Source: Pomacea canaliculata (Eukaryota > Mollusca > Gastropoda > Architaenioglossa > Ampullariidae). From it: 64,000 nucleotides of DNA. Positions 29,893 to 62,100 of this stretch are shown here, one piece after another (the stretch's first letter is position 1; each line of letters begins with the position of its first letter). The notes below the pieces were generated by a model. The model worked only from the letters and a program-made list of their open reading frames with translations. It did not search any database and was not told where the DNA came from. The DNA lies in assembly GCF_003073045.1 (NCBI RefSeq), contig NC_037597.1:23016158-23080157 (forward strand), read 5' to 3'. The translations under genes and the position numbers were made by a program.

Positions 29893-31619
29893 ATACCTTT
29901 GCTTTTCATCCATCCACCCACCCACCCCACACACCCCACACACCCACACACACGCACAAACACTCATCCCCACCAATTTTTTCTAAGAGAATGCTTCTTC
30001 AATAACTGAACCTTGCACAGTAAAACATAAAATGGAACTCCGATTCTGCAATACCTGTACAAAAAGGAGCATGACAGAAAGCTGACTTAGTCACTAGAGT
30101 TAACAAAACTCAATGAGGCTCGAGAAGAGCCAAAAACAAACGATGGCATCACATACCCGTATGAGTTGAACAGGGTATGAGCACAGAAAGACGATTTTAG
30201 TGTTCGATCAAGTGAAAAACGATCTTCAATGGAAGTTGGCTAAGTTTGAAGGCAGTGGATTAGATCACCCAGCTGCTGATACGGCAAAGAATAAATCTTT
30301 ATTAACCATGGTAACAGAATAAGCAAAATTTAAGCAGTTTTATGAGAGTCTGACGAATACAAAAACGACTGCGTGATTTACCGGGCTAAGCTAAAAAAAA
30401 AAATAATAATAATTCTAAAACAACTGCCTAATTGTATGCACACACTTATCCTCTCAATCCAGTCATTAGGGCCCACCTGGGCGTAAATTTGTCGGACAGA
30501 AAGTTAAACACTTCATCCCGCTCTCACTCATTCTGAAATACTTCGGAACATGCAGCAACTGCTAAATATAATTGTGAGGGAGGGAAGTTCCTGCCTTGGC
30601 ACACACTTCATTAACCTTTGTTACACATTAACCTTTGTTACACCGACACATTTCCCCCTCCCGGTCTGAGTTCTGTCGGGTAAACAAAACCATAAACTAC
30701 ATGTTCGTAGTTGCCTTCGGTTGACCAGGTACAGCCAGGTACTTTAGATACTCACAATTTTCTGGGGGTGTACTTGCCACAGTTCGTTGTTGGTGAGTGG
30801 TCTCTTGAAAAGACATCCAGAGAATGGTGTTCCTCGGTTGTCACAGCAATCAACTGTAATCCAGCAATACTTCATAAATGGTCGCTTGCACCGTTAACAT
30901 CCTTAGAAACACGTATTCCAACGGAACGCAGTAGTGCCTGAGGTAACCAGGGTGCAAAGCAAGGTATCAGATAAGATGCCCATAACTCAAGACAAGGGAG
31001 GGACCAACACTTGTATGAAAGGCCTACACTGTCTCTCCGCCTCCCAAAACTATGCTTAACGTGGTCATAATTATAATAATTGTCAATACAAAGTTACAGT
31101 ATTGTCAGGAAAGTTCCAAATAGACTTGTAACCGATACAAAGTGTTAAAATATTCAGGTTAGGCGAGCACAATCAACCCAGTAGCCGATAGCCAGCATGT
31201 CTCCACGGGAAGTGAAATACTGGCCACCCGTAAAGTTTGAACATCATACTCGTCCTTCCTGAACTTTCCAAACAACTCACGCTTCTCAGTTTTCACGTGC
31301 AAAGTGTCCGCAGATAACATGCTCAGGTGTACTGCTGACTCAAATTCTGAATCCTGGCCTTGACACCTTGGTCACTACTGTTATTGACAGTATCAAAGTA
31401 ATAAGACTAGTAACCATAAATAATCAGTGCATGTTGTTGTGTGTTTCTGTAGATGTAAAATACATTAAGTTATCTGGCTTTCCGTAGCACAGCCATAGAC
31501 TTTAATATTTCAGACCAGACGATGTGCACTGACCATGTGTGGCTTTCTCTTTCTCACTATCAGTGTCTAAGGTTTATGATATTCACAAGTAATTATTACA
31601 TTTTCAAGTCAATTTTTTC

Positions 31620-31652
31620 TTACATTTTCCACAATTTTTTTTCCAGGTAAGT
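31620..31652 (+). promoter_or_regulatory. Splice acceptor fused to a consensus donor (AG|GTAAGT)
   Basis: A pyrimidine tract ending TTTTTTTTCCAG is followed directly by GTAAGT, 21 nt before the start codon of the 601-residue protein. The acceptor part is the likely start of the coding exon. The immediate GTAAGT matches the structure of a recursive (zero-length exon) splice site. Confidence 0.5.
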
Positions 31653-31673
31653 CTTCTGATCTTGTTTCTCAAA

Positions 31674-33479
31674 ATGGCGAACCTGCTACCCAAGAACCGT
31701 TTAGTACAAAAGCGCAACGTGAGTCTGGAGAAGCAGCTGGAGGTGAGGATGCAGATTTTGAGGGAGGAGTACCGCCAGACAAGGGAGGTCATCGCCAGCT
31801 GCCAGCGTGACTGCGGCTACTTCCTGCAGCGACTGCACCGAACTGCGCCGGGACTCCAGGCCTACTGTCCACCCGACACCCGCGCCATGAGGACCAACAC
31901 CTTGTTGAGGGAGCGCCGCCAGTCCTTGTCCAGTAAGTGTGGTCAGACCTGGGACTCCCATCACCTCGTATCCAGACTCCGTCGCCATACTTCTAGAGAC
32001 ACGCAGCGTGTTCATCTGCCACACGACCTGCTGCCTGATGCTGTTCCGTTCTCCGTCGACAGCGAGGCCGGTCGTCCAGACGACGAAGACGACGATATTG
32101 TGGAAAAGAACGCAAGCATAGGCAGGGTAGACAATCCAGCCAATATTCCTCACTCGGTAGATGGTGCAAGAGAGGTAATTCCAGCTGTGGAAAAAAGCAG
32201 GTCTGCAAGTGGGTTTGATTCTATCAACGAAAAGACCGGTGTTTTGACCACGCATGCAGTGGCACCCAGGGTGCGATACTCGGCGCACGTGCGGCCAAGC
32301 AGCAGCAGCAGCTTCAAACTCCTGCAAGGGCAGGTAACCAGCGAGCGACCTCCGTGGGTCGGCCAGACGGGATGCAGGTACGGCAAAGATGCGTACACAG
32401 AGTGCGAGCACTTGCTGAGAAACAGAATAATTGGGCAGTTCGAAGTTATTTTTGGTCCGCGGACACACAGCCCTGAGACTGACCTGGAGGATGCATCACC
32501 ATCCGAGGTAACACAACACATTCAAGACGTAGTTGTCGCCCCGTCTTCTAGCAAGCCTCTCCGCCCACAGACAGCTGGTCTAACGCGTGTGTGCAATGCA
32601 GCTCCACGGCCACACACAGCTGGTATTATGTCCAGCTGTACCAAGCCTCTCCCCCAACACGTGGCTGCAGTCCCCCACAGTTCCACTAAACGCGTACAGA
32701 GCGCTTACCCTACCTTGCGACAAAGAGTTAAGACTGTCAACATCACAAGACCTTCGTCCGTAACCAAACTCGTCCTTCCAGAATATCAGGATCGTACAGG
32801 AGTATCTCCCACCCCGGAAACTGTACCTCCCACATTTCAAAACTCTATAGACACACCCACTGCATCGCACATTTCTCCAGAAGAAACCTCTACACCTCAC
32901 GTCCCTCCAGACATGCCTCTCACATCTCCATCAACTTCAGATGCCCTCTCCCCACCTCACACCAATCCACAGGTTCAGGCTTCCATCGACCCTACCAGTA
33001 TTTCCACCAACACCCTACCACAGTCAAGACTCAGTGCGGTGGGCATTGAAAGTCAAGCTGACACTCAACAGGCTCACATCCCCTTCACTCCCATGGCTCA
33101 GGCCCAGCCACCTCACGGACAGTGTGTATCTCCTGCCCACGTCACTAACCCAAACCAAAAGCATTCCACTGTCTTGGCAGTCAGCACTAGCAAAATTGCA
33201 CCTAGGACCTTCGCACCACTTGCCACCCTCAGTCACATGACCACAACAAGGCAACTAGTCTCCAGGCTGCTTTCTTTGGGTGTAAAAGAAAATTCTAGAG
33301 ACCGGCCAAAATCAGCTCCAACCAAATATGAACTCAGTCACCGGTCCTTGCCAGCCCCCAGACAGACGGTTATTGGAATATTGGCACAAATTGAGAATCG
33401 CAGGGCCGAGATAAGAGCCAAGCTGAAGATGAGCAAAGAGCTACAGGATGTGGTGAAAAGCCTGGTGCCCTGTGACTAG
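31674..33479 (+). CDS. Uncharacterised 601-residue protein with RPxTAG-like motifs
   Basis: One uninterrupted frame runs from ATG (context AAAATGGCG) to TAG. The N-terminus is basic and helical (EKQLEVRMQILREEYRQTRE), followed by a conserved-looking Cys-bearing stretch (VIASCQRDCGYFLQRLH). An acidic patch (GRPDDEDDDIVE) follows near residue 135. The middle is rich in Pro, Ser and Thr and holds related short motifs: RPQTAG, RPHTAG, RVQSAY and RPKSAP. The C-terminus returns to helix (GILAQIENRRAEIRAKLKM). There is no signal peptide or membrane segment. Such motifs together with terminal helices recall cytoskeletal or ciliary proteins, but that is inference and I do not recognise the gene. A splice acceptor at 31645-31646 suggests at least one upstream non-coding exon. 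Long opposite-strand frames here are shadows. Confidence 0.8.
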   Translation: MANLLPKNRLVQKRNVSLEKQLEVRMQILREEYRQTREVIASCQRDCGYFLQRLHRTAPGLQAYCPPDTRAMRTNTLLRERRQSLSSKCGQTWDSHHLVSRLRRHTSRDTQRVHLPHDLLPDAVPFSVDSEAGRPDDEDDDIVEKNASIGRVDNPANIPHSVDGAREVIPAVEKSRSASGFDSINEKTGVLTTHAVAPRVRYSAHVRPSSSSSFKLLQGQVTSERPPWVGQTGCRYGKDAYTECEHLLRNRIIGQFEVIFGPRTHSPETDLEDASPSEVTQHIQDVVVAPSSSKPLRPQTAGLTRVCNAAPRPHTAGIMSSCTKPLPQHVAAVPHSSTKRVQSAYPTLRQRVKTVNITRPSSVTKLVLPEYQDRTGVSPTPETVPPTFQNSIDTPTASHISPEETSTPHVPPDMPLTSPSTSDALSPPHTNPQVQASIDPTSISTNTLPQSRLSAVGIESQADTQQAHIPFTPMAQAQPPHGQCVSPAHVTNPNQKHSTVLAVSTSKIAPRTFAPLATLSHMTTTRQLVSRLLSLGVKENSRDRPKSAPTKYELSHRSLPAPRQTVIGILAQIENRRAEIRAKLKMSKELQDVVKSLVPCD

Positions 33480-42300: not shown

Positions 42301-44828
42301 TTTACTTGTCAATAAATATGAAGTTTATTATCTGCCTTTATGCCAGCATCTTTCAGCCTTTTATGTTCTTGCATACTCAAAAAGCTGTCAATGACTCAAC
42401 AAGTTAAGAGTACACACATTTCAGCCCTAAATAAGGTGTTCTGCTCCATGATGGATTTCCCTCATCAGTAAACAAAGATAATCAAGCACAACAAGGCAAA
42501 CACTGATAGCACCCAGTATAAATGCATCCTTTATAAACAGCCATGGTCCTGTTCTCAGAAGTGCATTTCATCATACCGCCATCCTCATGATTGGACAATT
42601 TTTGTGAAGTATTGATATTCTTCCCACCCAAGATTTTTTCCACAATCTTTAAAAAGAGTATCTGAATAACTCTCAGCTATAGACAAGAGTATGCGAATAA
42701 GCTATACACGAGCTATATTCACTTTCATCCCATTTTCATCACTTTTCATCAGACTGGTCAAGCTGTTCTGCCATTGATAAGCTTGGCAAATCCTCTGCAA
42801 GGACAGACCACTTTGCTACAAGAATTTTAATACTTGAACATTTTTAATTACTTCATTCATTATTATGCAACATTAGGGAACACATGCCAATGTGGCAAAT
42901 TATACATCACAAATCTTGAGAAAATGCTGTTAAATCATGCCAGATACACTGAGATAAGTAAAAAGCATGATCGAATTACGTAATGAAATATCAGTGAAGA
43001 AACAGAAATATTCTTAATGAAATAGTCTATAATTCTGCATTATTTTCTGCATGCTGCAAGCATATATCCAATGCTGTGCACACTATCAAGTATGAGATCT
43101 ACACACAAAGACTTTAAAAGTTTTGTTACAATTTATAGCTTGCTTACCCATGATCCCAAAATATGGCATAAAAGCACAACCGCAAAGCAACCGGAATGTA
43201 ATGAATCAAACTGTTTAAAGTACATACAAAAATTATCAACAATTTTGGACTTTCACATACACAAATATATATGTATATAATAGATATTCCAGTAAACCCA
43301 AGGCAAAAAGACTAACCCATTAACTGGCAAACATCATGCACATAGTTTGATTTTTTTTTTCCACTGACAAGACTGGAGTGATATCATTTGAAAAATGTCT
43401 AAAATCCTAACCATCTTAGCTACCATACTCAAATCATTCCAAAATCATGTGACACGAAACAACCGCTTTATGCTTTAGATGAGACGCATTAAGATTCTCA
43501 GAAGTAATGAAGACTATTAGCTATTTATGTGACTGAACATCCTATGATAACAACATGACTGTTTAAAATCAAATATAAACACAAATCAAAATATGACAGG
43601 GACAGAAAAATATAAACAATCTTCTACTAAGCAAGGCATTGCCTATGCTTGCAATACATAAATGACAACAATCTTTTTGATATTAATCATATGTAGCCTT
43701 CCCACACTAAACACAGCTATCATTTTAAGTGAACACATTGTGCTCCCAAAGCCTATTGAAGCTAAAATATGCTGAAATAAACCAATGAGATTATGAAGAA
43801 CATAACTTTATCACAGTGACATAAACTGTCCATCTCCACCACATTAAGACTCAAACTGAAATACTCAGTTGTAGCAGCAGAGCTCTATATTACAAACTGC
43901 TTTGTTCTTTCAGGAGAAAAAGAAGAACAACTTTTGGCTATTTACAACAATCATCACAGTTTTCAGTTAACACTGACAATCAATGAAATGTCTGAAATCT
44001 CAGTGTTAAATTGTTCTTTGCTGAAATATAGTATCTGAGAAATTCATCAAAGAATAACAGCTGATATCAAAACCAACATGGTCCAAAAATACCATCAGTG
44101 TTCAAATTTCTTCATAATAATTATAACATTGAACATCCGGTATAGCAGGGAGATGCAATGCAAAAATATGCATTCTTCTTCATATTATTATTAACTGACA
44201 ATGCCAGGGGTCTCGAGATCATTATAACAATTTTGCTTTAAAATATTTAAAAGCATGAAGAATGGCCATTATTCTAATTCCTGACAAAATCAATAACACC
44301 GAAACAAGAACAGTTAACTTTTTGACTGCTGGTATTCTGTTACTTTGCCAGGAAAGCTAGCATATACTAAACCTGCTAACAATGCATTTTAAATTGTTTC
44401 TTAATAGATGTTTGTCACACTAGATACATGCCTGAAAACCTGGTAAGTTAAGTGAGATCTACAACCACCTTCAAAACAAATATCTAGGATAAATCACCAG
44501 TAAGGGTTATCACATACAAATTTTCACAAAGCCCACACACAACGATAGTGCTTGCTTGACATTTTTGATTTGCATTTTTGTTTGTGAACTACCATATTAT
44601 TGTATGCTAAAGATTTAACCAAACTCAACACTATTTATAATATGTTAGAATTTTTCACAAAAGGAGCTTTAGATTTTGAACGCTTTATTTTCAACTCACT
44701 AGGTTTGTCTTTTAGATCCACTTAATATATATTTGTATCTCCATATTTAATATTTGACGAGTCAGTTTTCAGCCAGATCTCAAAATCTTAACATTTCAAC
44801 AATGTAAAAATCAGTCAGTATTTCAACA
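39311..44828. other. Long gene-free, AT-rich region
   Basis: I see no believable coding exon. The plus strand is T-rich from 39.3 to about 41.1 kb, then becomes A/C-rich. Judged by the skew of known introns and UTRs nearby, this suggests the COA4 3' UTR on the left, and 3' UTR or read-through of the minus-strand membrane-protein gene on the right. Confidence 0.35.
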
Positions 44829-45851
44829 GGTTCCCAGTCACTTAATCCCCAGACACTTCATCCCCGACACTTCATCCCCGACACTTCATCCCCGAGACAT
44901 TTAATCCCTAAGCACTTCATCCCCAGACACTTCATCCCTAAACTAAATTCTTAACTATAAAAATTATGAAGTCAGCGAAAAATTTTATTGAAATTTATTA
45001 ATTAATCATACTTAATTGAAATTCAAATAATTCAAATTCAAATCATGCTATTAACTTCAACGTCATTTGAACATCTACAACATTAGTTAAAATTCATATA
45101 AGCAAGTAAATGTAATGTTCTTCAACAATATGATATGAAAATTGTTCTTGAGTGTTCGCGAGGTAATTGCTGTTAATCAATATGAAAGGTAAGCTAATGA
45201 TCGGAGGTACAGAAGACGATCCGTTGACTCATATCTCTCAACAATGTTGCTAATTCTCCTGGCTAACTCAGCGTATTTCTTCTTTGCACGTTTCTCTGTG
45301 CCGGCGCATGATTGTAGAACAGACGCCTTGTGTAGCTGACAATCCTTACGTAGACCATCAAGGAATTCGAAGGAATCGACGATGTCTTCCTCACATACAT
45401 AGGCCAGTGCTGGGAGACATCTGACCATTCCACGTAACTCGTCGTCTTCGTCATAGTCACTTCTCATCCCCAGTTCAGAGACTTTGCGTAATACCGCTTG
45501 ACTTAAGTGAAAGTAACAGCCCGTTACTTTACATGACTGAAACTTCTCTCTAAAAGCGGTCATCGCAGCTTTCTCAAAGTCTGTTACTATTGTCTCTGGA
45601 GCTGCATTAGGCACTAGCTCTCTAACTGCACCCAACAATCTATTATAGGTTGCTCTTGATTTGTCCTGAAGAGGAAGTGTCGGGGATTAAATGTCTCGGG
45701 GATGAAGTGTCTCGGGGATGAAGTGTCGGGGATGAAGTGTCGGGGATGAAGTGTCTGGGATGAAGTGTCTGGGGATTAAATGTCTCGGGGATGAAGTGTC
45801 GGGGATGAAGTGTCGGGGATGAAGTGTCTGGGGATTAAGTGACCGGACACC
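44829..45851 (-). mobile_element. MULE-type DNA transposon, internally deleted
   Basis: A 9-bp direct duplication (ATTTCAACA) flanks the element at 44820-44828 and 45852-45860, the size expected for Mutator-like elements. Both ends are inverted and share the outer block GTCACTTAATCCCCAGAC. Each terminal region is an array of a roughly 14-bp unit (GACACTTCATCCCC and variants): about 7 copies on the left and about 11 on the right. Inside is a fragment of a MULE transposase on the minus strand. The element is about 1.0 kb and lacks most of the transposase, so it is non-autonomous. Confidence 0.88.
45177..45674 (-). pseudogene. MULE transposase fragment
   Basis: The open frame contains RATYNRLLGAVRELVPNAAP, then ETIVTDFEKAAMTAFREKF and TGCYFHLSQAVLRKV. 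This is the central MULE transposase region, including the DFE motif with a catalytic Asp and the conserved C-x2-H. The upstream half of the protein, with the first catalytic Asp, is absent; the frame runs straight into the terminal repeat array. The end of the frame is followed by AT-rich sequence without further homology. Confidence 0.85.
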
Positions 45852-46744
45852 ATTTCAACACATTCTGTTGCAGCTCTTTAAATTTTGATGTTAAAGTGTA
45901 ATCATCTGTGTGAACAATAATAATCATACAAGCAGTAATCAATGAACTCCTGTCAAAATAAATAAATAAAAAGTAAAACAAAAATCTGGACAGATCAAGT
46001 ACTGGGCGATAAATTTTCCTTCTGATCAATGCACTTTTAAAACAAGATTTAAAACATATAGGATCTCCTTCCCTCACATTAACACAGACAACATGTATTC
46101 ATTTCAGTCTGTAAGCTAATAACCACTGCTAACATTATACACATGAATCCTGAAACTTTATCTTTTTTGTTTTTGTTATCTACATTTTTTGTTTTTGCTG
46201 CGCAATGAGCATTCTTCTGAATGGATACCTGCGCATTACAAATAGACATCATCATCATCATCCTGCAAGAACTAATTCACACAAGAAATCTACCCAGTCA
46301 TCTCAAATAGTGAACTGAAAAGTGACCATGACAAACTTTGCACCTATCATGGTAAGAAAATCAAATTTCTTTAAAGTTCTTTTTATGTAAAGTATTTACA
46401 CATTATCAAAATTAAAATTCCTTAACCAGTTATGCTTACATTGTAAAAATAATAGGTCAGCCGGTGGGGGTATTTTGTTCAATTTGATCATTTCTCAATA
46501 ACATCTCCAACGATCACGTTGTAATGAAATTGGAAACGACAAATGTTATTGGTATCTTCATTCATCTTTACTTTTGCAGGAAGACTTTGAACACTCCACA
46601 AGACTATAACTTTGAGCATAGTACTAATGCAAAATTATAATACTTTTCACTAAAATTATCGCAATCATACTTTTAAAAGAAAAAGATGACGGTGAGCTCT
46701 GACAAGAATTTTACAAGGTAGGGGAGGGAAACAGGGACAAACAG

Positions 46745-58346: not shown

Positions 58347-58392
<46 letters not shown>

Positions 58393-59174: not shown

Positions 59175-62100
59175 CTAAGGTCTCTCAACAACAGTGTAAG
59201 ACAGCTGGAAGCCATCAAACTGGTATGATTCATCCGAGTGGAAGTGTAGAACCAACGCGTTGCCTGGGTAACGGATGTCTTCTGATGGTCCCTTTCCACA
59301 AAATCTGCAAGTACAAAGCAGACTGGGCAGCTGCGATCCAAATTTCTCCACGGGAAAGTCTTGTCAAGGTTGTCATAACAGCTCTAGGAATTTCAACATC
59401 ATCACACGATTTCAATAAAATAAGGAATGTACCTTGAGTCCGCCATTCTCTTAATAACTCTGCATGAAATATCAAATATGAAATGCAGGAGACAGGACAT
59501 ATCACCCTGTCACGATGTGAAACTACTTTCAACTATCCGTTAAAGTAGAAGACGTGTTTATTTCTTTTATCCCTTTACGTTGATGACGTGGAGTTTTATT
59601 ATTATTATTTCTTTCGGCGACAACACCAACCTCTGACCGTTGAGGTGAGGTCCCAGTGTCCTGACCTCCAACCAGTCAAAGGCGCACGGTTGCACGCGAT
59701 CGTCCTCTAACTCGAAGTAATGAAACGTCAGCACCACAGAAGCATCCCCTGGGCCCTGGATGTCAGACAGAGCATCGTGTCTTTCACAATACAACTTTTT
59801 TTTAAACTTTGTGGCAGTTTATCTCAACAATCTCTGCTAAGTCCTCGGGGTCCTTTCTGGAGCATTTTGAGAGCCCGTGGTAAGGGTCTGTAATAGTGGT
59901 TAGAACTCCAGCAGCCACGTCAGGCAAAGAAGACATACTTGTATAAAGCTGTACATACCTGTATAAGCCTCTACATACCTGTATAAGCCTGTACATACCT
60001 GCAGAAGCCTGTAATACCTGTATAAGCCTGTACATACCTGTAGAAGCCTGTAATACCTGTAGAAACCTGTACATACCTGCAGAAGCCTGTAATACTTGTA
60101 TAAGCCTGTTCATACTTGTATAAGCCTGTACACACCTGTATAAGCATCTACATACCTGTATGAGCCAGAGGCAGTCGACGCCGTTGGTGTAGCCAGTGCC
60201 ATAGCCTGGACTTTCTATAACGCCATAGGAGTCGTTCAGGACGCCCCCGCAGTCTGCGTGAGAACCAGAAATCCTATTCTTATAACCAGCTGCAACTACA
60301 TTTAAAAGAACAATGAAGCTGGAAATTAAATATGAACGCGTGTGGTCGAGGGTTTCTTTTCGACAGATGAATCACGTGAACAAAATGTCGGCGACGTGTG
60401 AGCGGCTGGTTATTTCAGAAGTTGCGCATGTCCGGAAACTCCTGCATTGATACAATCAATCCTTCAGTTCCAAGCTCACCTGCAGTCGACGGCTTGACTT
60501 CGCGGCAGTTCCAGCCCCCCAGTCCGGTGGGGCACACACACGTGCAGTCCGGCCCCACGTACCCTGTGTTGTCACATTCAGGCCACACCCGGCAGTCCTC
60601 TGGGTCGCACAGACAACAAACAACACAACCTGTCAGGTAGACAAACCTTCACAAACAACAGCAGAAAATCTGTGAAAAATATCGGCAGAGGTAGCCGTGA
60701 CGACAGTAGTAGGTACAGCAACATGTTCTTGTTGCTGGTGGATATGATGGTTGTGGGTGAAGTGAATGCTGTGACGATGTTGTGGTAATTGTGGTGGCAG
60801 TCTAGCGAAGAACTCGAAGAAACATATGTAGTCCTTTCGGTCGTTGAGGAGGTGTTAGAGACCTCGCGTTTCTCGGGGCCAGCTTTACTTAAGGGCAGTG
60901 CCTGTCTCCCCGTCTCTCTTCCTTACCTTCTGCAACCCTCTATGGGGTCACGTACCCACTACCGACAGTCAGGTCGAATGTGTCGGGAGATGCATGAGGG
61001 GAGAAGGGGGTCATTTAAGTTCGCTGCGGCACATGGGTATCGAACCGATGCGCTTTCAGATTCGACGCCAACGCTCTAACCACCAAGCTATCGGTTTCCG
61101 ACACCTATGCTGCCAACACGTGCATTTGTGGGGGCGCTTTAACATGGTAACATGATATGATTCCCATGTCAATCATACATGTATACCAACCCTTACATCA
61201 GTCACGCTCTCTACCACCTGTTGTACTGCTGAACCTAGACCAGCAGACCAAGAGCGACGGTGATAACTGCGCGCGCACACACACCCACACACACCCACAT
61301 ATTGTATCATGAGAAACAAGCCATACAATCACGAACGTCACCTCCTTGACGTCACACACAGTACTCACGCGCACAGCTGTAGAGGTCGTTGGCTGTCTTG
61401 ACGTCGATGAAGCTGGGCACGTGACGCTGTCCCATCACCGCTCGAAGGGACTCGTCCTCCGTGTCGATGGTGCGTGACTCACCGTCCTTGCTGAAGTACT
61501 GGCCACAATCAATGACATCAGATCAGCCAGTGAGCAGACGACACATATACACCCACTACTACTACTGAAAATAAAATACCGCTTATAGGACCTATGTGTT
61601 ACACCTCACGTACTGTTACGTCCCACTTCCACTCGACCTTAGTGTTACGTCTCACTTACAGTAGGTCCGTAGTGCATGACGGAGCCGATGTCGTAGGGTT
61701 CGCTGGTGAGGATCTCGGTGTTGGAGTACTTGAGGAAGTTGTACTGCCGATCGCTGCGGATGTTGAAGCGCAGCACGGTGACGTAGTTGTCGCGGTCCGG
61801 CCGCGAGTGTTCGTGATAGAAGCCCAGCACGTGACCCAGCTCGTGCGCCACGCTGCCAAACTGACGAGAACAGACAGACGTCACACACTGAACGTATCAT
61901 TAGCAGTGTGAACGCACTGACAAGCAGAGATTCCGGTCTGAGACACACACACAAACACACAAACACACGACTACGACTGTTGGCACTATGCAGCTGCTTG
62001 TCTACGTCGGTGAGCAGGCGCTGACGACAAAGAAGCGTTGAAGGAACAAGACGAGCATTACCTCGTTACAGTTATCGCCGATCTCTGTTGTCTGTTTCCC

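What the first reader, a model, noticed from the sequence alone, without database searches (positions are those of the whole stretch)
59933..60173. A minisatellite built from the gene's own 5' splice site
About eleven tandem copies in the intron resemble the last 11 bases of the upstream astacin exon plus its donor. The array starts at the real exon-intron junction, and several copies keep ACAG|GTATGT. The reading frame from the exon stays open through the array for about 118 codons. The splicing machinery is therefore offered a ladder of near-identical donors, and use of a later one could insert repeated residues (LIQ..., YR...) into the CUB domain just before its second half. Copy-number variation could change the protein.
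Basis: partly seen in the sequence, partly recalled or inferred. Interest (0 to 1): 0.75.

Follow-up and report, generated by a model that had tools for sequence, protein, structure and literature searches.

The report
Donor-site minisatellite in snail intron
In what is almost surely the golden apple snail, the last 11 bases of one exon plus the splice signal behind it have been copied about eleven times in a row into the following intron; this is a known but rarely described kind of repeat, and it most likely leaves normal splicing at the first copy.

Summary
Window 59933-60166 (minus strand) holds 11.9 copies of a 20-bp unit that begins inside a CUB-domain exon (11 bases) and runs across its donor into the intron. 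The host is Pomacea canaliculata; the gene is an astacin-CUB protease. An astacin-CUB paralogue on another chromosome has the same intron, same place and phase (WLIQ|), without an array. So the intron is older than the array and the array was made from the exon end. Similar junction arrays stand at 5 of 22 other donor-ladder places fetched; three neighbouring CAP-type paralogues have 6, 7 and 3 copies, and a distant one shows none in 215 intron bases. This is the 'mirage' kind described in amphioxus (PMC3087553), here in a mollusc.

The functional reading is only partly supported. By U1 pairing the later donors equal the first, but of six strong ones only +177 keeps the frame; the other five meet a stop. 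The open frame is expected of a unit without stop triplets. No RNA evidence was available; amphioxus mirages are reported to be spliced normally. New member of a known kind.

The parts
61654..61881 (-). astacin exon of the same gene (core of the catalytic domain)
   Evidence: Pfam Astacin E 7.3e-25; genome hit C8:23077811-23078038
61373..61498 (-). astacin exon of the same gene (end of the catalytic domain)
   Evidence: Pfam Astacin E 1.4e-7; genome hit C8:23077530-23077655
60156..60253 (-). CUB exon, first half; ends ..DCLWLIQ| in phase 0 (its own start, after CACGCAG, is inferred from the sequence)
   Evidence: Pfam CUB 26.6 bits for 60156-60260; 51 bits when joined to the next exon
60154..60155 (-). 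authentic donor CAG|GTATGT (GT of the junction)
   Evidence: homologous donor in the C4 paralogue
59933..60166 (-). junction minisatellite: 11.9 copies of a 20-bp unit (11 exon bases + 9 intron bases), with five further exact CAG|GTATGT donors and one CAG|GTGTGT
59756..60155 (-). intron, 400 bp, 223 bp of it array
59631..59755 (-). next CUB exon, GPGDASVVLTF..HLNGQ(R)|GTTGGT, 125 bases
   Evidence: 15.2 bits alone, under the cut-off; 51 bits joined; same end phase in the C4 paralogue

Best explanation
This is a junction minisatellite of the 'mirage' kind. In an old intron of an astacin-CUB gene, a 20-bp stretch made of the last 11 exon bases and the first 9 intron bases was duplicated in tandem and then grew to about 11-12 copies, partly as 39-bp double units. 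The exon copy is held by selection on the protein; the intronic copies drift and are homogenised. Shown: the array, its match to the exon end, the authentic junction, the age order (intron first, array later), and other arrays of this kind in the genome. Inferred: the first donor goes on being used, because it borders the coding exon and because use of most later strong donors would shift the frame and be removed; the array is then mainly a by-product of local duplication, with at most a small leak into aberrant transcripts.
For: Array and exon-tail match above chance. The two exons join to a CUB match of 51 bits against 26.6 and 15.2 alone. The paralogue on C4 has astacin exons (17911565-17911924 and 17911979-17912104), a CUB exon ending CSWLIQ|GTACAT in phase 0 at 17913545, an intron of 266 bases, and a next exon (to 17913954) with the same end phase as ours; TRF finds no tandem array in the 601 bases that hold this intron (0 rows at score 30). 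WLIQ is also in CUB paralogues on C2 (L023, L033), so the repeated letters come from conserved coding sequence. Five other coding junctions have the same anatomy: L073 (C6 cluster; unit 24 = 15 exon + 9 intron), L075 and L080 (C1, CAP type; unit 35 = 12 exon + 23 intron), L088 and L089 (C4 paralogues; unit 34; 9 of the last 10 exon bases match). Of the CAP-type genes L075 and L080 have 6 and 7 exact donor copies, L095 has 3 copies (2 exact), and a distant paralogue (42% identity) has none in the 215 intron bases read. PMC3087553 and PMC3902484 (passages) describe the same anatomy in amphioxus genes and report that it does not disturb splicing.
Against: The U1-pairing estimate does not favour the first donor over six later ones, so exclusive use of the first is not shown by sequence. 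There is no transcript. In PMC2812944 (passages) human tandem repeats at exon-intron boundaries often do give alternative transcripts. In 14 of the 22 fetched ladder places no coding exon was recognised upstream; at L086 (and its near-copy L087) a frame that looks coding lies on the opposite strand, so a donor word inside an array need not be a donor.
Confidence: 0.83

Rival explanations
1. A working donor ladder: the spliceosome uses several array donors, so the gene makes CUB variants with inserted repeat residues, and copy number tunes them.
For: Six later strong donors within 0.8 kcal/mol of the first in U1 pairing; frame open to 59802; human precedent for alternative splicing at boundary repeats (PMC2812944, passages).
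Against: Five of six strong later donors shift the frame and meet a stop in exon 2; the only strong in-frame one adds 59 residues with cysteines inside the CUB fold; amphioxus mirages are reported to be spliced normally.
Confidence: 0.07
2. The intron itself was gained by tandem duplication of an AG|GT proto-splice site, and the array is what is left of that event (intron-gain models of Rogers and of the mirage paper).
For: The array fills 223 of 400 intron bases; the intron's 3' end resembles the exon end (local score 18; 78 of 5000 shuffles as good); all 114 other rows cross this position in one stretch (some with a stop inside).
Against: An astacin-CUB paralogue has the same intron in the same phase without any array, so the intron predates the array. 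The 3' end resemblance is equalled at 27 of 450 other CAG|G places in the window. The uninterrupted rows are a biased sample: exons split here score too low to be listed, and the C4 paralogue itself is missing from that list.
Confidence: 0.03
3. A dispersed satellite family landed beside the exon, and the exon-tail match is chance.
For: Similar arrays of 10-bp period exist at C14:8345838-8346229 and C2:1009021-1009214; by eye no coding exon lies beside them in the pieces read.
Against: Those arrays share only 68-79% identity with this one and have other units; 7 of 8 bases before CAG match, against at most 5 of 8 at 142 other places; the matching letters are protein-conserved.
Confidence: 0.04
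4. Assembly artefact that inflated or misplaced the array.
For: Tandem arrays are hard for assemblers; PMC3087553 mentions a wrongly assembled mirage in the amphioxus draft.
Against: Long-read assembly (PMC6129957, passages); units differ from each other and the flanks are intact coding sequence; the same anatomy recurs in unrelated genes.
Confidence: 0.03

Closest known systems
'Mirages' of amphioxus: minisatellites spanning an exon-intron boundary in Adh3, globin, troponin C and PGBD5 genes (PMC3087553, PMC3902484; passages read. The original Adh paper, PMC117041, was not held)
   Same: Tandem units made of exon end plus intron with AG/GT signals in many copies; a 20-bp unit lies in the 10-72 bp given for Adh3; several genes of one genome have them; copy number varies (there between haplotypes, here between paralogues).
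   Different: Mollusc, not cephalochordate; allelic or somatic instability and splicing not tested here; the age order is shown by an array-free paralogue with the same intron.
Variable internal tandem repeats at exon-intron boundaries of human segmental-duplication genes (PMC2812944; abstract and passages)
   Same: Minisatellites at exon-intron boundaries, varying among recent paralogues.
   Different: There the repeats gave new introns and alternative transcripts supported by RNA; here the intron is old and no RNA was seen.
Intron gain by tandem duplication of AGGT (Rogers, cited in PMC3087553; potato RdRp case PMC4974935, search listing only)
   Same: Duplication of a stretch that holds AG|GT.
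   Different: The intron was not gained by it: a paralogue has it without the array.

Membership tests
mirage (junction minisatellite) | tandem units span an exon-intron boundary of a coding gene | tested here: met
   array 59933-60166 overlaps exon 60156-60253 by 11 bases
mirage (junction minisatellite) | many copies carry AG/GT splice signals | tested here: met
   six exact CAG|GTATGT including the authentic one
mirage (junction minisatellite) | regular splicing is not disturbed | not testable with these tools
   no RNA data; inferred from amphioxus reports
mirage (junction minisatellite) | length instability between alleles or in the soma | not tested
   only a proxy: 6, 7 and 3 copies in three CAP-type paralogues (the L075 piece ends inside the array)
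intron gained by tandem duplication | intron absent from relatives without the duplication | tested here: not met
   C4 paralogue has the intron, same place and phase, no array
variable protein repeat made by alternative donors | unit keeps the reading frame | tested here: not met
   20-bp unit; one of six strong later donors in frame

The most novel reading that the evidence does not exclude
Donor-ladder minisatellites are a recurrent class in the apple snail (14 places listed for one donor word against 1 for its reversal), arising among others in probably secreted families (astacin-CUB, lectin-like, CAP-type), and some are used: where the unit is a multiple of three (24 bp at C6:927593-927781, one step = VCSWLTAQ), alternative choice of donor would give proteins with a variable number of inserted repeats, changing quickly with copy number.
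Probability: 0.08. Interest if true: 0.75.

Novelty: new member of a known kind. Interest (0 to 1): 0.4.

Why it matters
Runs of equal donors side by side are natural tests of how the spliceosome picks one 5' splice site; CAP-type paralogues with no array, 3, 6 and 7 copies lie in one genome. It also carries the amphioxus mirages to another phylum, which argues that they are a general product of local duplication and not a peculiarity of cephalochordates, and it separates junction duplication from intron gain in this case.

Tried and rejected
Amphioxus as the host was the first guess because of the mirage papers; a GFP-family search found nothing (its control rang nowhere, so it says little), and the mitochondrial contig and genome size gave Pomacea canaliculata instead. 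Against that: the paper's passage gives 27.2 Mb as the shortest chromosome, while contigs C12, C11 and C14 here have 23.7, 24.3 and 19.4 Mb, and totals differ slightly (440,071,717 against 440,159,624). Intron gain by duplication was rejected on the paralogue; the 3' end resemblance is weak. A fold of the pre-mRNA that stands out was sought and not found (z -1.10, 32 of 200 shuffles fold as well). Excess of donor ladders in the genome: 111 and 262 overlapping matches against 3 and 6 for the reversed patterns. My first count of the single words (12 against 2) was wrong, because one locus in the sample, L070, holds a copy of the window array; without it the two words searched count 4 against 2 in 249,437 bases. 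By places, the GTATGT pattern has 14 listed (list cut) against 1 for its reversal. That suggests an excess, but the numbers of single words are tiny and only one reversal was looked at by place, so I do not claim it as shown. The similar arrays on C14 and C2 were read and have no recognised exon beside them. Paper searches for mollusc or Pomacea cases listed none that I could recognise from title and abstract, and passages of one Conus paper (PMC3862624) mention no such array; that covers only the held open-access library.

Full report
What is there. On the minus strand, TRF gives an array at 59933-60166, period 20, 11.9 copies, score 321. The unit reads GGCTTATACAG|GTATGTACA. The first copy is the end of an exon, GGCTCATACAG, and its donor. 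The exon (60156-60253) is the first half of a CUB domain; joined to 59631-59755 it scores 51 bits. Upstream on the same strand are two astacin exons, 61654-61881 and 61373-61498. The host genome has 440,159,624 bases in 24 contigs. Its mitochondrial contig has 15,707 bases and its gene order looks caenogastropod (the order is recognised from recall). PMC6129957 (passages) gives for Pomacea canaliculata a 15,707-bp mitochondrial genome, 440.1 Mb, a longest chromosome of 45.4 Mb (C1 here 45,418,568) and a scaffold N50 of 31,531,291 (the length of C6). Its shortest chromosome, 27.2 Mb, does not fit three contigs here; I still take the species as settled.

Is the exon-tail match real? Against the 11-mer of the unit the exon has 10 of 11; the best elsewhere in the window has 9 of 11 (7 of 127,378 positions). 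Leaving out the CAG, the exon has 7 of 8; the best of 142 other CAG|GT places has 5 of 8. The single difference is a silent third-codon change. WLIQ recurs in CUB paralogues, so the letters belonged to the protein first.

Which came first, intron or array? The C4 paralogue has astacin exons, then a CUB exon ending TGGCTTATCCAG|GTACAT at 17913545, an intron of 266 bases, and an exon of 143 bases that ends in the same phase as ours of 125 bases. TRF finds no tandem repeat in the 601 bases around this intron, and the joined pair scores 40 bits as CUB. So the junction is authentic and old, and the array was added in the window gene. This goes against intron gain by duplication for this intron. For completeness: all 114 other rows cross this position in one stretch, but that list cannot show split exons well, and the C4 paralogue is not in it.

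Is it alone? Two exact patterns of three donors in a row found 111 and 262 overlapping matches; both printed lists were cut. Besides the window's own array the printed lists hold 22 places; I fetched all 22 (7, 15) and read up to about 260 bases before the first donor word by eye and in three frames. Five start at an exon whose coding nature is supported by paralogues in the genome: L073, L075, L080, L088, L089. Two are plausible but unsupported (L078, L093). One lies about 55 bases inside an intron after a transporter exon and is not made from its donor (L077; exon Pfam SNF 5.3e-18). In 14 no coding exon was recognised by eye; of these only the longest frame of L074 was sent to Pfam (no family), L084 and L094 do not reach the array's start and cannot be judged, L086/L087 and L090/L091 are near-identical pairs, and L086 has what looks like a coding frame on the opposite strand. 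The CAP exons match Pfam only weakly (E 0.12 and 0.10, under the cut-off), the L078 frame matches a family of unknown function weakly (E 0.0052, under the cut-off), and the lectin-like reading of L073, L088 and L089 is by recalled motif, with no Pfam hit for L073 and L089 (L088 not sent).

Three CAP-type neighbours on C1 carry 6, 7 and 3 copies counting the exon (the L075 piece ends inside the array, but one search lists no further exact donor there). Exon letters of two differ at 13 of 141 places and the intron before the exon is 57 of 102 alike, while most array units are identical apart from one T/G position. A more distant paralogue with a donor at the same place has no array in 215 intron bases. 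On C4, L096 and L097 share the exon end and 17 intron bases; L097 then has a short piece of the array and L096 has none. Arrays of this kind thus come, go and change length while gene and intron stay.

Are donor ladders in excess? The GTATGT pattern has 14 listed places including ours (list cut), its reversal one place. The single words count 1 against 1, and for GTAAGT 3 against 1, in 249,437 bases (this corrects). Suggestive, not shown.

What would the ladder do? U1 pairing estimates are -9.9 for the authentic donor, and -9.1, -9.7, -9.7, -9.7, -9.9 and -9.7 for those at +20, +79, +118, +157, +177 and +197. Sequence alone does not single out the first. Read through to exon 2, five of these six shift the frame and stop in exon 2; +177 stays in frame and adds 59 residues; weaker ones at +60, +99 and +138 are also in frame. 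I think the first donor is used nearly always (inference), as reported for amphioxus mirages (PMC3087553 and PMC3902484, passages), though boundary repeats in human paralogues often do give alternative transcripts (PMC2812944, passages). No RNA could be read here.

Verdict. A real junction minisatellite of a known kind, in a new phylum as far as the searches show, with its origin order settled by a paralogue. The protein-variation idea is weak for this 20-bp unit and better tested at the 24-bp array on C6.

Noticed in passing
L073 (G000:C6:927550-928400): Junction array with a 24-bp unit (15 exon + 9 intron bases) after a probably lectin-like exon; being a multiple of three, each later donor would add VCSWLTAQ in frame.
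   Followed up: partly
L075, L080, L095 (C1:31053380-31084750): Three neighbouring CAP-type genes carry the same 35-bp junction array with 6, 7 and 3 copies; array units are nearly identical although the exons and the preceding intron have diverged.
   Followed up: partly
L096 and L097 (C4:11048540-11048840, C4:11074340-11074640): Twin paralogues alike at the exon end and for 17 intron bases; one then holds a short piece of the array and the other none, as if the array moved between neighbours by recombination.
   Followed up: no
L088 (G000:C4:11055950-11056620): Here the donor at the exon itself reads CAA|GTAAGT, weaker at the last exon base than the CAG|GTAAGT copies behind it, so a later copy might compete with it.
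   Followed up: no
window 44822-45858: A stretch with a MULE transposase fragment (45177-45686, Pfam E 1.3e-6) between arrays of a 14-15-bp unit in opposite orientation (inverted arms 102 nt, 91%): a MULE-like element with tandem-repeat termini.
   Followed up: partly
G000:C14:8345838-8346229 and C2:1009021-1009214: Arrays of 10-bp period resembling the window array (68-79% identity), with no coding exon recognised beside them.
   Followed up: partly
window 31593-33479: Long uninterrupted frame of 628 aa on the plus strand; no Pfam family above its cut-off.
   Followed up: no
window 58347-58392: Perfect TTG trinucleotide run, 15.3 copies.
   Followed up: no
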